From assembly GCA_907163075.1 (NCBI GenBank), contig CAJQTY010000001.1, forward strand, positions 2,046,001-2,110,000: DNA of 64,000 nucleotides. The letters are read 5' to 3'. Each line of letters opens with the position of its first letter. Position 1 is the first letter of the stretch. Source of the stretch: an uncultured Rhodocyclaceae bacterium. Its GTDB lineage: Bacteria; Pseudomonadota; Gammaproteobacteria; Burkholderiales; Rhodocyclaceae. The position numbers were made by a program, and so were the translations under genes. This document shows positions 18,365 to 22,683 of this stretch, in pieces. The notes under the pieces were generated by a model that saw only the letters and a program-made list of their open reading frames with translations, was not told the DNA's origin and searched no databases.

Positions 18365-18754
18365 ATGATCGGTATCCTCCTGATAACGCATGGCACGTTT
18401 GGCGAGAGCCTGATTCAGAATGTCTGCCATGTTCTCAACAAACGGCCGCAATTGATCGGCCAGTTCGGTGTTGCGGCGCAGGACGATCCGCTGGATATCC
18501 TGCCCATGGCCAGGCTGCTGCTGAAGGAGGTCGACGACGGTGAGGGGGTGCTGATCATGACCGATATCCTGGGCGCCACGCCGGCCAACCTGGTACTGAA
18601 GCTGCTGATACCGGGTCGTGTCGAGGGCATCGCCGGGGTCAACATGCCGATGCTGCTGCGCGCACTGACCTATCGCAAGAACGGAATGGAAACGCTATTG
18701 CAAAAAGCCATCAGTGGCGGCCACGACGGCGTCGTCAACATGCACCGACACTGA
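18365..18754 (+). CDS. PTS fructose/mannose-type EIIA domain protein
   Basis: Single EIIA domain of the mannose (PTS-Man) family, 129 residues. The phospho-acceptor is His9 in LITHGTFGE, and VLIMTDILGATPAN is a family signature. With HPr and enzyme I directly downstream, and no EIIB, EIIC or EIID permease visible, the set looks like a regulatory phosphorelay and not a sugar importer. Such three-gene sets are known in betaproteobacteria. A GGGA lies ten bases upstream of ATG 18365. Confidence 0.92.
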   Translation: MIGILLITHGTFGESLIQNVCHVLNKRPQLIGQFGVAAQDDPLDILPMARLLLKEVDDGEGVLIMTDILGATPANLVLKLLIPGRVEGIAGVNMPMLLRALTYRKNGMETLLQKAISGGHDGVVNMHRH

Positions 18755-18784
18755 CCGTTTTAGATTTATCAACAGGAAATCCCA

Positions 18785-19054
18785 ATGCTACGCGCTGAAA
18801 TCGAAATTTCGAACAAACTGGGCCTGCATGCTCGTGCTTCGGCCAAGCTGACGCAACTGGCCGGCAGTTTCAATTCCGAGGTGTGGATGGAGAAGGGAAC
18901 GCGCCGGATCAACGCCAAGAGCATCATGGGCGTGATGATGCTGGCGGCGGGCAAGGGCTCGACGGTGGTCGTCGAAACCGCCGGCAACGATGAGCAGCCG
19001 GCGCTCGAATCCCTGCTCAAACTGATCTCCGACAAATTCGGCGAAGGCGAATAG
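18785..19054 (+). CDS. ptsH: Phosphocarrier protein HPr
   Basis: Eighty-nine residues. The active His15 is in GLHARASAKL, and Ser46 is in AKSIMGVMMLAA, the site that an HPr kinase (HprK) phosphorylates in organisms that have one. HPr takes phosphate from enzyme I and gives it to EIIA. AGGAAA precedes ATG 18785. It lies 30 bases after the EIIA gene and 7 bases before ptsI. Confidence 0.97.
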   Translation: MLRAEIEISNKLGLHARASAKLTQLAGSFNSEVWMEKGTRRINAKSIMGVMMLAAGKGSTVVVETAGNDEQPALESLLKLISDKFGEGE

Positions 19055-19061
19055 GCAAGCC

Positions 19062-20801
19062 ATGAGCTTCACTTTGCACGGACTCGCCGTTTCGAACGGC
19101 ATCGCCATTGGCCAGGCGCATCTGCTTTCGCAAGCCACGCTCGAGGTTTCGCACCTCGTCATCACGCCGCGCATGGTGGAAAAGGAAGTGGCGCGTTTCG
19201 AAACGGCGCTGGCAAGAGTGCGTAGCGAGTTCGAGGCGATGAAAGTCAGCATGGAGAAATCGCCGACCGATATCCGGGCCTTCATCGACCTGCACATGAT
19301 GATCCTCTCCGACCCCGAGTTGTCCGAAGTACCCAAGCAGATCATCCGCGAGCGGCGCTGCAACGCGGAATGGGCGATCGTGCAACAGATGGAGGTGCTG
19401 GTTGCACAGTTCGACAAGATCGACGACGCCTATTTGCGCGAACGCAGTTACGACGTGCGCCAGGTCGTCGAGCGCGTCGTCCGCGAACTGACCGGACGGC
19501 CGGGCCATGCCGCGGTCAAGGTGCCCAAGGGCGTCAAGGGAGAAAACCTGATCGTCGTCGCGCATGACCTTTCCCCGGCCGACGTGATGGCCTTCAAGGA
19601 TCAGCATTTCGCGTCCTTCGTCACCGACGTCGGCGGCGCCACCTCGCACACCGCGATCCTCGCGCGCGGCATGGGCATCCCGGCGGTGCTCGGCCTGCAC
19701 AACGCGCGGCAACTGATTCGCGACAAGGAAACGATCATCGTCGACGGTACGCGCGGCGTGCTGATCGTCAATCCCGACCCGCGGATTCGAGAAGAATACG
19801 AGCTCAGGAAGAGCCAGATCGAGATCGAGCGCTCGAAGCTCAAGCTGTTGAAGACCGCGCGCGCGACGACGCTTGATCGGGTGAAGATCGAGCTCCTGGC
19901 CAACATCGAAGAGCCGAGCGACGTCGCCATCGCGCTGGAGAGCGGCGCCGAGGGTGTCGGCCTGTTCCGTACCGAGTTCATCTTCCTCGGACGTGGCGAC
20001 ATGCCGAGCGAGGACGAACAATTCGAGGCCTACCGCAGGGCCGTCAAGGGGATGGACGGGCGGCCGATAACGATCCGCACCTTTGACCTCGGCAACGACA
20101 AGAGGGTGCATTCGAGCATGACCGAGGATCGCAAGCGCGACAATCCGGCGCTCGGCCTGCGTTCGATCCGCCTGTCGCTGACCGAACCGAAATCGTTCCA
20201 GGCGCAGTTGCGCGCCATTCTGCGCGTCTCGAAGCTGGGCAAGGTCAAGATCCTCATCCCGATGCTTTCGCACGGCCATCAGATCGACCAGACGCTCGCC
20301 GCTCTGGAGCAGGCCAAATCCAGCCTGCGTGGCGAAAAGATTGCTTTCGACGAGAGCATCGAGATCGGCGGGATGATCGAGGTGCCGGCCGCCGCGCTCG
20401 CCGTTGGCCTGTTCCTGCGCCGCATGAATTTCATTTCGATCGGCACCAACGACCTGATCCAGTACACGCTGGCCATCGACCGCAGCGACGAGCAGGTGGC
20501 CAGCCTCTACGACCCGCTGCATCCGGCTGTCATGATGCTGCTGGCGCACGTCATCAGCACCGCCGAGAAGGTCAATGTACCGGTGTCGATGTGCGGCGAA
20601 ATGGCCGGCGACCCCAACCTGACCCGCCTGCTGCTGGGCATGGGCCTGCGCCAGTTCTCGATGTTTCCGGCGCAAATTCCGGCCTTCAAGCAAAGAGTCA
20701 AGCAGAGCGACATTTCGGGGATCACGCCGATCGTCCGGCGCATACTGCGCCTCGAGGAATCCGCCAAGATCCAAGAGCAGATCGATCGTCTCAATATTTG
20801 A
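19062..20801 (+). CDS. ptsI: PTS enzyme I (phosphoenolpyruvate-protein phosphotransferase)
   Basis: Enzyme I of 579 residues. The phosphorylated His196 is in GGATSHTAIL. The PEP-binding C-terminal domain contains GVGLFRTEFIFLGR, IRTFDLGNDK, FISIGTNDLIQYTLAIDR and the catalytic cysteine in SMCGEMAGDP. It uses PEP to phosphorylate HPr. It is the last gene of the three-gene PTS set; about 30 bases separate its stop from the metX riboswitch. Confidence 0.97.
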   Translation: MSFTLHGLAVSNGIAIGQAHLLSQATLEVSHLVITPRMVEKEVARFETALARVRSEFEAMKVSMEKSPTDIRAFIDLHMMILSDPELSEVPKQIIRERRCNAEWAIVQQMEVLVAQFDKIDDAYLRERSYDVRQVVERVVRELTGRPGHAAVKVPKGVKGENLIVVAHDLSPADVMAFKDQHFASFVTDVGGATSHTAILARGMGIPAVLGLHNARQLIRDKETIIVDGTRGVLIVNPDPRIREEYELRKSQIEIERSKLKLLKTARATTLDRVKIELLANIEEPSDVAIALESGAEGVGLFRTEFIFLGRGDMPSEDEQFEAYRRAVKGMDGRPITIRTFDLGNDKRVHSSMTEDRKRDNPALGLRSIRLSLTEPKSFQAQLRAILRVSKLGKVKILIPMLSHGHQIDQTLAALEQAKSSLRGEKIAFDESIEIGGMIEVPAAALAVGLFLRRMNFISIGTNDLIQYTLAIDRSDEQVASLYDPLHPAVMMLLAHVISTAEKVNVPVSMCGEMAGDPNLTRLLLGMGLRQFSMFPAQIPAFKQRVKQSDISGITPIVRRILRLEESAKIQEQIDRLNI

Positions 20802-20834
20802 CTTTTGCCAGTGCTAACGGTAACTTCCTCACAT

Positions 20835-20889
20835 AGCGCCGATTTGAACGATCAGCTTGCGGGCGCTCAATAAATACGGCTAAAGCGGG
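20835..20889 (+). promoter_or_regulatory. SAM-II-like riboswitch upstream of metX
   Basis: The P1 stem is AGCGCC (20835-20840) with GGCGCT (20862-20867). Inside comes the near-invariant GATTTGAAC (20841-20849), and after P1 the conserved single-stranded segment AATAAATACGGCTAAAG (20869-20885). The order CG-C-GATTT-AAC, GCGC, ATAAAT, GCTAAA is that of the SAM-II (metA) aptamer, which binds S-adenosylmethionine in a pseudoknot. Its place 60 bases before metX fits repression of methionine synthesis when SAM is plentiful. SAM-II is best known from Alphaproteobacteria, so this occurrence deserves a covariance-model check. Confidence 0.82.
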
Positions 20890-20894
20890 GCCCG

Positions 20895-20928
20895 CCCAGT
20901 CCGCTTTTTTCAGGCCGACTGGGTTTTT
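20895..20928 (+). terminator. Intrinsic terminator in the metX leader
   Basis: CCCAGTC (20895-20901) pairs with GACTGGG (20917-20923), and a T-tract (TTTTTGTTTT) follows at 20924. The loop holds a further T-run, 20905-20910. It lies between the riboswitch and the metX start, so SAM control could act by premature termination and not by hiding the ribosome-binding site. It might instead just terminate ptsI transcripts. Confidence 0.68.
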
Positions 20929-20950
20929 GTTTTCTTCCGATACGATCGCA

Positions 20951-22078
20951 ATGTCACTAGAGAATTCCGTCGGAGTCGTTGTTCCGCAACGAGTCCGTTT
21001 CAATGAGCCGATGACGCTGAAGAGCGGTGCACGGCTGCCCGGTTTCGAACTCGTGTTCGAAACTTACGGCACCCTGAATGCCGCGCGCTCGAATGCCGTT
21101 CTCGTTTGCCACGCGCTTTCCGGCGGTCATCACGTCGCCGGCATTTACGCCGACAACCCGCGAAACGTCGGCTGGTGGGATAACGTGGTCGGCCCCGGCA
21201 AGCCACTCGACACCAACAAATTCTTCGTCGTCGGGGTCAACAATCTTGGCGGCTGCTACGGCTCGACCGGGCCGATGTCACTCAATCCCGAGACCGGCAA
21301 GTGCTATGGCGCGGATTTCCCGATGGTCACCGTCGAGGACTGGGTGGCGGCGCACGCGCGCCTGGCCGATCACCTCGGCATCGAGACCTGGGCGGCGGTC
21401 ATGGGCGGCAGCCTGGGCGGCATGCAGGCGCTTGAATGGTCGCTGCAGTTCCCGGACCGCATCCGCCACGCCATGGTGATCGCCTCGGCGCCCAAGCTCT
21501 CGGCGCAGAACATTGCCTTCAACGAGGTGGCGCGGCAGGCCATCATCTCGGATCCCGATTTTCACGGCGGCCACTATGCCGAACACGGGGTGGTGCCGAC
21601 CAAGGGCCTGCGCCTGGCGCGCATGGTCGGCCACATCACCTACCTGTCGGATAGCCAGATGGGCGAAAAATTCGGCCGCCAGTTGCGCCACGGCGAACAC
21701 AAGTTCAGTTACGACGTCGACTTCGAGATTGAGTCCTACCTGCGCTACCAGGGCGACAAGTTCGCCGGATTTTTCGACGCCAACACCTACCTGATCACGA
21801 CCAAGGCGCTCGACTATTTCGATCCGGCCTACGCCTACGACGGCGACCTGGCCGCCGCGCTGGCGCGCGCCAAGGCCAGCTTCTTCGTCGCCAGCTTCTC
21901 GACCGACTGGCGCTTTGCGCCAGCGCGTTCGCGCGAAATCGTTTTCGCCCTGGTGCACAACCGCCGCCATGTAGCGTATGCCGAAATCGACTGCGACGCG
22001 GGGCACGACTCCTTCCTGCTCGATGACGCCCACTACCACGCCGTGCTGCGCGCCTATCTGGAGAACATATCAACATGA
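20951..22078 (+). CDS. metX: Homoserine O-acyltransferase (MetX)
   Basis: Alpha/beta-hydrolase-fold acyltransferase of 375 residues that acylates homoserine at the start of methionine synthesis; acetyl or succinyl specificity cannot be told by eye. The nucleophile serine sits in [13 protein letters not shown], and the early signatures [13 protein letters not shown] (here with one change) and [12 protein letters not shown] are present. The catalytic Asp and His lie near the C-terminus in FSTDWRF and [14 protein letters not shown] 20951 gives the usual N-terminus; the frame extends back to a TTG in the leader terminator, which I discount. The stop overlaps metW by four bases. Confidence 0.95.
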
Positions 22079-22683
22079 ACTTTACGGCCAAGGAACGCGA
22101 ACGTTTCGACTTTGCCGTCATCGCCAACTGGATTCCACCCGGCGAGCGCGTGCTCGACCTCGGCTGCGGCGACGGAAAGCTGCTGCGCTACCTGCGCGAA
22201 ACCAAGGGCGTCTTCGGTTACGGCGTCGAGATCGATCACGAGAGCGTGCTCGGCTGTATCCGCAACGGCGTCGACGTGATCCAGATCGATATCGAAGGCG
22301 GCCTCTCCGGCATCGAGACCCAGTCCTTCAACCACGTCATCATTTCCCAGGCACTGCAGGCGATGCACGGCACCGAGCGTATCCTCGGCGAAATGCTGCG
22401 CGTCGCCGAAGAGGCCGTGGCGAGTTTTCCCAACTTCGCCTACCGCGCCAACCGGGCGGCGATCGCCGACGGGCATATGCCGGTTTCCGAGGATCTGCCC
22501 TACGAGTGGTACGAAACACCGAACGTGCGCTTTTTCACCATAGCCGATTTCGAGGCGCTGTGCAGCAAGCTCGGGATCGAGATTCGCGAGCGGCTGGCCT
22601 TTGACGAGAACGGGCAGTTGGTAACCGACGACCCCAATCTGAACGGCAGCCTGGCCTTTTATCGCCTCGGTCGAAAGTCCTGA
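22075..22683 (+). CDS. metW: Methionine biosynthesis protein MetW
   Basis: SAM-dependent-methyltransferase fold protein of 202 residues. Motif I is [12 protein letters not shown] near residue 25, and the family signatures [19 protein letters not shown] (about 50-68) and the [16 protein letters not shown] stretch are clear. MetW pairs with MetX in many proteobacteria and is needed for MetX activity. It overlaps metX (ATGA), so both are translated together. Confidence 0.95.

What the first reader, a model, noticed from the sequence alone, without database searches (positions are those of the whole stretch)
20835..20928. SAM-II-like riboswitch followed by a terminator in the metX leader
The aptamer core (P1, GATTTGAAC, AATAAAT, GGCTAAAG) fits SAM-II, which is known mostly from Alphaproteobacteria. 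Here a complete intrinsic terminator lies between it and metX, so control may be by attenuation, whereas the usual SAM-II model is translational. The three-gene PTS just upstream could also read into it.
Basis: partly seen in the sequence, partly recalled or inferred. Interest (0 to 1): 0.7.

Follow-up and report, generated by a model that had tools for sequence, protein, structure and literature searches.

The report
SAM-II riboswitch with terminator before metX
A short RNA switch in front of a methionine-synthesis gene probably senses the cofactor SAM and stops transcription when SAM is plentiful; the switch is of a known kind, but tracing its relatives led to an apparently undescribed cousin in front of the gene that makes SAM.

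Summary
Window 20835-20887 holds a SAM-II aptamer, followed by an intrinsic terminator (20895-20928) and metX-metW. Rfam SAM_alpha scores it 34.5 bits, under its cut-off of 36; a second copy in this genome, before metH, scores 41.8. Relatives show P1 covariation, a terminator in 88 of 91 fetched loci and a promoter-like site upstream in 130 of 188. [quoted passage not shown] The metX leader is a new member of a known kind.

Three things look new. (1) The 'metXZ' RNA of beta-proteobacteria (2014) appears to be SAM-II. (2) Rfam's Bp2_287 'sRNA' lies opposite SAM-II-like metZ leaders, 6 of 6 tested. (3) A diverged SAM-II relative precedes metK in this genome, in 28 of 28 readable metK leaders among 30 fetched and in 134 of 300 genomes of the order. 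Its pseudoknot covaries, and Rfam matched it in none of 12 leaders. SAM binding was not testable.

The parts
20798..20826 (+). promoter-like site: TTGACT (20798-20803), 17 nt, TAACTT (20821-20826); overlaps the stop codon of the upstream PTS gene
   Evidence: 8 of 12 consensus letters; 130 of 188 relatives reach 8 of 12 at this place against 35 of 940 shuffles. Not found by the stricter scan.
20835..20867 (+). P1 stem (20835-20840 with 20862-20867) enclosing loop L1 (20841-20861) with the conserved GAUUUGA and CAGCUUGC
   Evidence: 95.8% of P1 cells paired, 5 of 6 pairs with changes on both sides; -9.7 kcal/mol.
20877..20887 (+). 3' tail CGGCUAAAGCG that closes the pseudoknot on L1 (20861-20877, 20860-20879, 20859-20880, 20857-20882, 20856-20885, 20855-20886, 20853-20887); with P1 and L1 it is the SAM-II aptamer
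   Evidence: RF00521 alignment 20826-20900; pair counts (96.7% paired; 3 pairs invariant; the 20861-20877 type pair changes G-C to A-U).
20877..20917 (+). proposed antiterminator: 20877-20880 with 20914-20917 and 20882-20888 with 20901-20907
   Evidence: contained in the minimum-energy fold of transcripts ending at 20917 and 20920; enrichment of tail complements in relatives' terminators. Inference.
20895..20928 (+). intrinsic terminator: stem 20895-20901/20917-20923, inner stem 20903-20906/20912-20915, U tract 20924-20928
   Evidence: Sequence and fold; terminator in 88 of 91 fetched loci against 19 of 91 resampled controls.
20951..22078 (+). metX (MetX; best NCBIfam model homoserine O-succinyltransferase MetX, NF047916, 672 bits over a cut-off of 560)
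22075..22683 (+). metW, overlapping the end of metX (metXW operon)
   Evidence: TIGR02081, 240.9 bits over a cut-off of 189.5
18365..20801 (+). three PTS genes upstream (EIIA-like 18365-18754, HPr 18785-19054, PtsI 19062-20801); context, not part of the switch
   Evidence: the EIIA gene only below model cut-offs

Best explanation
It is a SAM-II riboswitch controlling metX-metW by transcription attenuation. A promoter just upstream starts the transcript a few bases before P1. When SAM is scarce, the 3' tail of the aptamer (CGGCUAAAGCGG) pairs with the half-made terminator as it emerges, so polymerase passes into metX. When SAM is plentiful it locks P1 and the L1-tail pseudoknot; the tail is no longer available, the terminator forms and metX is off. 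Shown here: aptamer architecture, terminator, promoter-like site, gene context, conservation and covariation of P1. Inferred: SAM binding, the off-direction, and the kinetic antiterminator.
For: Aptamer: RF00521 34.5 bits, genome E 9.4e-6; second copy 41.8 bits before metH (partial protein at the locus end) with its own terminator. Relatives: 94 of 150 family genomes at E <= 0.01; downstream genes of 91 fetched loci, the window's included (of 132 places listed, my count): 48 metX, 22 metH, 13 metZ, 8 none of these. Structure, on 60 sequences picked by hand from 189: 96.3% of cells paired, 6 of 13 pairs and 42 cells changed on both sides (shuffles 2.2 and 11.4, 0 of 500 as high); slid versions pair in 20.6-47.9% of cells. 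Attenuation: terminator in 88 of 91 loci, controls 19 of 91; strong complements of the tail inside the terminator in 27 of 163 against 70 of 3260 shuffles; the leader's own x2x3GCT complement in 47 of 163, permuted mean 31.5, none of 2000 as high. In the window the tail-terminator pairing is in the predicted fold of RNA ending at 20917 and 20920, and the terminator is in that of RNA ending at 20924. Known precedent.
Against: The window copy is below Rfam's gathering score. Its P2b is short (about 3 G-C pairs) and nearly invariant, so pseudoknot covariation rests on one tertiary pair (54 G-C, 3 A-U, 1 G-U, 2 unpaired). 34 of the 60 aligned sequences came from a pattern scan that fixed most of L1, the first P1 3' letter and the tail, so conservation there is by construction. 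One slid version (+1) also has 5 pairs changed on both sides, though only 14 cells against 42 and 33.8% of cells paired. At full length the terminator is the predicted minimum with or without the tail blocked, so switching must be kinetic. L1 complements in terminators are only weakly enriched (63 of 163 against 844 of 3260). No ligand data.
Confidence: 0.86

Rival explanations
1. A fixed terminator at the end of the PTS operon beside a decayed or unrelated SAM-II-like stretch; metX is expressed constitutively and there is no switching.
For: Strong terminator (-14.0 kcal/mol stem alone) and no ligand data. The leader does not fold better than shuffles (z -0.54).
Against: Aptamer core and terminator are kept together across genera and before three methionine genes, a promoter-like site is common just upstream, and a second copy precedes metH in the same genome. 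P1 covariation implies selection on the structure.
Confidence: 0.06
2. A SAM-II switch that acts mainly on translation or RNA stability, with the terminator secondary, as reported for metA of S. meliloti (PMC9373788, passages seen).
For: Some relatives lack a terminator and put a purine-rich, ribosome-binding-like stretch next to the tail (L111). The six (Para)Burkholderia metX leaders show no clear terminator by eye.
Against: In the window 63 nt and a full terminator lie between the tail and the metX ATG, and no good Shine-Dalgarno sequence overlaps the tail.
Confidence: 0.06
3. The RNA has the SAM-II fold but senses another ligand, such as SAH.
For: Sequence alone cannot fix the ligand. PMC10853860 (passages seen) shows a SAM-I variant that senses spermidine.
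Against: The core letters match SAM-II consensus positions and most genes behind relatives are metX, metH or metZ (83 of 91).
Confidence: 0.02

Closest known systems
SAM-II riboswitch (Rfam RF00521 SAM_alpha; metA motif, PMC1273637)
   Same: P1, GAUUUGA, CUUGC, GCUAAAG, H-type pseudoknot, methionine genes, promoter just before P1, terminator behind
   Different: Beta-proteobacterial copy; P2b short; 34.5 bits, under the cut-off of 36; tertiary pair mostly G-C
metXZ RNA element of beta-proteobacteria (PMC4239095)
   Same: Upstream of metX, or of metZ in Methylophilales, Nitrosospira and Thiobacillus; pseudoknot of regions 1-4 and 2-6; terminator. Here SAM-II cores sit before metZ in Methylophilales HTCC2181 and Nitrosospira sp. 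Nsp14 and before metX in 6 of 6 (Para)Burkholderia
   Different: Described in 2014 as new and distinct from SAM_alpha; its alignment figure was not available to me. What I take to be its alternative conformation shows no covariation here
Bp2_287 (Rfam RF02424, Burkholderia 'sRNA')
   Same: Covers the metZ leaders that hold the SAM-II-like core; 101.6-158.4 bits in 6 of 6
   Different: Modelled on the opposite strand to the aptamer; filed as an sRNA. Its authors suggested a methionine cis-element (PMC3521395, passages)
SAM-II long loops (Rfam RF01726)
   Same: Related aptamer
   Different: 14.2 bits against a cut-off of 44
SAM/SAH riboswitch (RF01727), before metK in Rhodobacterales
   Same: Lies before metK, like the sister element reported here
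   Different: No significant match to the metK leader of this genome (16.3 bits against 40, and over the stretch before the start codon, not the aptamer)

Membership tests
SAM-II riboswitch class | P1 stem around L1 | tested here: met
   95.8% of cells paired, 5 of 6 pairs change on both sides in 60 sequences; across 189 sequences 149 to 188 paired, by position
SAM-II riboswitch class | pseudoknot between L1 and the 3' tail | tested here: met
   All seven pairs can form in the window; 96.7% of cells in 60 sequences. Covariation only at the tertiary pair, and 34 rows had most letters fixed by the pattern that found them, so support is mainly conservation
SAM-II riboswitch class | conserved core letters GAUUUGA, UUGC, GCUAAA | tested here: met
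   Alignment to RF00521, mean posterior 0.99
SAM-II riboswitch class | methionine or SAM genes downstream | tested here: met
   metX-metW; relatives 48 metX, 22 metH, 13 metZ, 8 none of these, of 91
SAM-II riboswitch class | binds SAM selectively | not testable with these tools
   needs in-line probing or calorimetry
Rfam RF00521 as a database family | gathering score of 36 bits | tested here: not met
   34.5 bits; met by the metH copy of the same genome, 41.8, and in 26 of 150 family genomes. A curation cut-off, not a structural criterion
transcription-attenuating riboswitch | intrinsic terminator between aptamer and gene | tested here: met
   20895-20928; 88 of 91 fetched loci. The strict scan did not list it
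transcription-attenuating riboswitch | mutually exclusive antiterminator | tested here: inconclusive
   Predicted transiently with enrichment in relatives; no experiment
SAM-II long loops (RF01726) | gathering score of 44 bits | tested here: not met
   14.2 bits
metXZ element (PMC4239095) | six conserved regions of its published alignment | not testable with these tools
   figure and supplement not held; gene placement and described pairings agree

The most novel reading that the evidence does not exclude
The metX leader is one of three SAM-II-lineage RNAs in this genome, and the third is an undescribed riboswitch type. It is a diverged SAM-II relative (GAGUUAA, ACAACUUGC, GCUAAAGCGUC, own terminator) before metK, the SAM synthetase gene, widespread in beta-proteobacteria and also used in tandem behind ordinary SAM-II switches. 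'metXZ' and 'Bp2_287' would then be further, misfiled members of the SAM-II lineage. SAM-II RNAs would govern homoserine activation, homocysteine formation, methionine synthesis and SAM synthesis in this group, filling a gap that a 2014 regulon study reported as unsolved for metK.
Probability: 0.6. Interest if true: 0.65.

Novelty: new member of a known kind. Interest (0 to 1): 0.42.

Why it matters
The metX leader itself is ordinary SAM-II biology just missed by the Rfam cut-off. It matters as the entry point to a wider picture. Three separately named items (SAM_alpha, metXZ, Bp2_287) look like one riboswitch lineage, and a diverged member precedes metK in the same genome. PMC4239095 reported that a search for a regulator of metK in beta-proteobacteria was unsuccessful. 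The metK element makes that question directly testable: does this RNA bind SAM, and with what affinity beside the metX and metH switches of the same cell?

Tried and rejected
Strict promoter/terminator scan: nothing found in 20700-21050; I relied on the explicit sequence and on comparison with relatives.

Thermodynamic stability as evidence: z -0.54, so not used.

The alternative conformation that I read out of the metXZ text (GCCGAUUU with AAAU.CGGC): pairs in 87.1% of cells but without covariation (score 0.049, shuffled 0.048), and it is weaker than P1 in the window (-4.8 against -9.7 kcal/mol). Not adopted.

L1 as main antiterminator strand: weak enrichment only (63 of 163 against 25.9% of shuffles). 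It may hold in some lineages whose terminators carry CGCAAGCUGA.

Rfam RF00521 for (Para)Burkholderia metX leaders: no match at E <= 5. My model R2, which contains none of these six metX leaders (but metZ leaders of three of the same genomes), found 6 of 6 (25.7-30.2 bits). In the 16 metX loci of that call, 10 matched at E <= 0.001; one of the ten, L252, is itself a row of the model. Five gave no match (Nitrosospira, Novimethylophilus, Methylophilales, Neisseria, and a MAG labelled Bordetella), and Aquitalea gave only 9.4 bits outside the leader. In the first three the element is at metZ instead.

Model R1 had its P1 bracket off by one column; it was discarded and replaced by R2.

Rows dropped: one search used 163 of 199 leaders (2 not parsed, 26 without a terminator by its filter, 8 duplicates). 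Of 132 places, 91 were examined. One search used 27 of 30 metK loci: L277 has a longer L1 (element seen), and L288 and L290 end at or within 23 bases of the metK match.

Papers: PMC4239095, sections 10 and 11 (part 1) plus passages; PMC2258182, PMC1273637, PMC2704228, PMC9373788, PMC3521395, PMC6337395, PMC2864571, PMC7736828, PMC12452182 and PMC10853860, passages only. No paper was read whole. Crystal-structure details of SAM-II are recalled and were used only to choose pairs.

Full report
WHAT IS THERE. Between the stop codon of ptsI (20799-20801) and the metX start (20951) lies a 149-nt leader. It holds, in order: a promoter-like TTGACT-17-TAACTT (20798-20826, its first bases overlapping the stop codon); a hairpin P1 (20835-20840 with 20862-20867) whose loop carries GAUUUGAACGAUCAGCUUGCG; AAUAAAUA; the tail CGGCUAAAGCG (20877-20887); and an intrinsic terminator (stem 20895-20901 with 20917-20923, U tract 20924-20928). 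metX and metW follow and overlap.

IS IT SAM-II? Rfam's default scan of the window reports nothing because the hit, 34.5 bits to RF00521, is 1.5 bits under the gathering score. At relaxed threshold it is the only strong hit (E 3.1e-6; next best 0.89), and for the whole genome E is 9.4e-6. RF01726 gives 14.2 bits against 44. The same genome has a second copy at C1:1298590, 41.8 bits, over the cut-off, with a terminator of its own, directly before metH (the protein is cut by the locus end). RF00521 matches 94 of 150 genomes of the family at E <= 0.01 (26 over the cut-off) and none of 14 control genomes, and 142 of 300 genomes of the order (52 over the cut-off). I take the family to be Rhodocyclaceae: one member shares its places with Thauera aminoaromatica S2, and another has a contig of the length of Ca. 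Desulfobacillus denitrificans AP021857.

COVARIATION. I aligned 60 leaders, chosen by hand for diversity from 189. With P1 and the pseudoknot as structure, 96.3% of cells pair, 6 of 13 pairs change on both sides (shuffled 2.2, 0 of 500 as high), and slid versions pair in 20.6-47.9% of cells; the +1 slide also has 5 pairs changed on both sides, but in 14 cells against 42. P1 carries the covariation (5 of 6 pairs). In the pseudoknot only the pair between the last L1 base and the tail (20861-20877 in the window) changes on both sides, from G-C to A-U in 3 sequences. PMC2258182 (passages) predicts a pair between the last L1 base and a downstream position in SAM-II from mutual information; I take it to be this one. 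Caution: 34 of the 60 rows came from a scan that fixed most of L1, the first base of the P1 3' strand and most of the tail.

ATTENUATION. A terminator follows the tail in 88 of 91 fetched family loci, against 19 of 91 first-order resampled controls. Strong complements of the tail inside the terminator occur in 27 of 163 leaders against 70 of 3260 shuffles. The tail's variable bases are matched by the leader's own terminator more often than by others' (47 of 163; permuted mean 31.5, maximum 45 in 2000). In the window the predicted fold of the growing RNA contains an antiterminator (tail with 20901-20907 and 20914-20917) when it ends at 20917 or 20920, and the terminator when it ends at 20924. 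Blocking the tail and L1, as bound SAM would, leaves P1 plus terminator. At full length the terminator wins anyway, so the decision has to be kinetic; this step is inference. A promoter-like site of at least 8 of 12 letters ending 4-18 nt before P1 occurs in 130 of 188 leaders against 35 of 940 shuffles; the metH copy of this genome is not among them. PMC1273637 describes the same placement (passages).

WHAT IS KNOWN. Terminator-linked SAM-II in alpha- and beta-proteobacteria was reported in 2007, and S. meliloti metZ has a predicted terminator-type SAM-II.

TWO RE-IDENTIFICATIONS. PMC4239095 reported SAM_alpha only in Rhizobiales and Rhodobacterales and described a new 'metXZ' RNA with pseudoknot and terminator before metX or metZ in beta-proteobacteria. 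SAM-II cores lie at such places: before metZ in Methylophilales HTCC2181 and Nitrosospira sp. Nsp14, and before metX in 6 of 6 (Para)Burkholderia genomes, where an inserted hairpin hides them from RF00521. A model built without those metX leaders finds all six (25.7-30.2 bits). I did not see the metXZ alignment itself, and these six leaders show no clear terminator by eye. Separately, six of six (Para)Burkholderia metZ leaders match RF02424 (Bp2_287, 101.6-158.4 bits) on the strand opposite to the SAM-II-like core. Its authors suggested a methionine cis-element but named no riboswitch class for it in the passages I saw.

THE metK ELEMENT. Model R2 gave a third, weak hit in this genome (22.7 bits, E 0.03), directly before metK (TIGR01034, 615.8 bits). 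Of 61 genomes searched, 59 had a MetK match; the 30 best loci were fetched. 28 of 28 with a readable leader carry the same element; the other two end at the gene. It has GAGUUAA, ACAACUUGC, GCUAAAGCGUC, P1, and a pseudoknot with GAC/GUC and GCAG/CUGC arms. Of 27 leaders, 24 have a T run behind it, and 21 have GCUC beside the tail with its complement GAGC further on. P1 pairs in 98.8% of cells with a covarying outer pair; within the family the pseudoknot hardly varies, and 19 of 500 shuffles equal the number of pairs changed on both sides. Across 76 distinct copies from all lineages fetched, metK and other genes together, one pseudoknot arm changes as AG/CU (50), GG/CC (18) and GA/UC (5), with 151 of 152 cells paired against a permuted mean of 131 and maximum of 138. 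No Rfam match fell on the element in 12 metK leaders. Model R3 finds it in 134 of 300 genomes of the order and in 25 of 299 of a phylum sample, 17 in the same order and 8 in one other family of the class. Of the 47 loci fetched, best first, 33 precede metK and 14 do not. In 20 named genomes 15 match; 10 of the 16 matches precede metK: Thauera, Zoogloea, Niveibacterium, Accumulibacter, Zeimonas, Burkholderia, Paraburkholderia, Herbaspirillum, Noviherbaspirillum and Herminiimonas. R3 also finds the window's metX aptamer (23.3 bits, E 0.0012), so the two are relatives. PMC4239095 states that a search for metK regulation in beta-proteobacteria was unsuccessful. My paper searches on this listed no description of it; the library lacks most subscription journals.

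TANDEMS. In 13 of 198 loci a second SAM-II-like element follows the first SAM-II. Where a downstream gene could be tested it was not metX, metH or metZ (for two of them also not metK).

SCORES. The metX leader alone would deserve about 0.25. The re-identifications and the metK relative, found by following it, raise the whole to 0.42.

Noticed in passing
own genome C1:613298-613388 (L263:1460-1542; L265:1359-1449): A SAM-II relative not matched by Rfam, with terminator, directly before metK. Present in 28 of 28 readable metK leaders among 30 fetched from the family and in 134 of 300 genomes of the order; pseudoknot covariation AG/CU, GG/CC, GA/UC.
   Followed up: yes
own genome C1:1298590-1298671 (L001:1501-1582): Second SAM-II copy with terminator before metH, 41.8 bits, over the Rfam cut-off.
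   Followed up: yes
L244, L245, L246, L248, L250, L251, about 90-160 nt before metX: (Para)Burkholderia metX leaders hold a SAM-II core with an inserted hairpin, not matched by RF00521. A later UUUAGCCGCC could pair either with the tail or with the GGCGG before the start codon, which suggests translational control (by eye).
   Followed up: partly
L136, L159, L165, L170, L178, L196: Rfam RF02424 (Bp2_287 sRNA) covers SAM-II-like metZ leaders on the opposite strand in 6 of 6.
   Followed up: yes
L011, L017, L047, L103, L104, L124, L139, L176, L177, L179, L191, L198, L201: Tandem arrangement: a SAM-II, then a second SAM-II-like element 58-122 nt behind it (13 of 198 loci); where testable the gene behind was not metX, metH or metZ.
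   Followed up: partly
L305-L308, L322: Family of small proteins of 95-99 aa beginning MYDC, encoded behind SAM-II and metK-type elements in tandem; function unknown.
   Followed up: no
L316, L317, L320: metK-type element before a gene that looks like a MoxR-type AAA ATPase (by eye, no family search).
   Followed up: no
L096 (5.2-kb contig): SAM-II-like RNA (29.4 bits) with a GCCC/GGGC pseudoknot arm before a short unknown gene.
   Followed up: no
L104:600-666 (-): SAM-V-like hit (33.4 bits, cut-off 41) about 800-900 nt downstream of a tandem SAM-II pair.
   Followed up: no
window 20951-22075: The best curated model for MetX is the succinyl-specific one (NF047916), suggesting homoserine succinylation rather than acetylation.
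   Followed up: no
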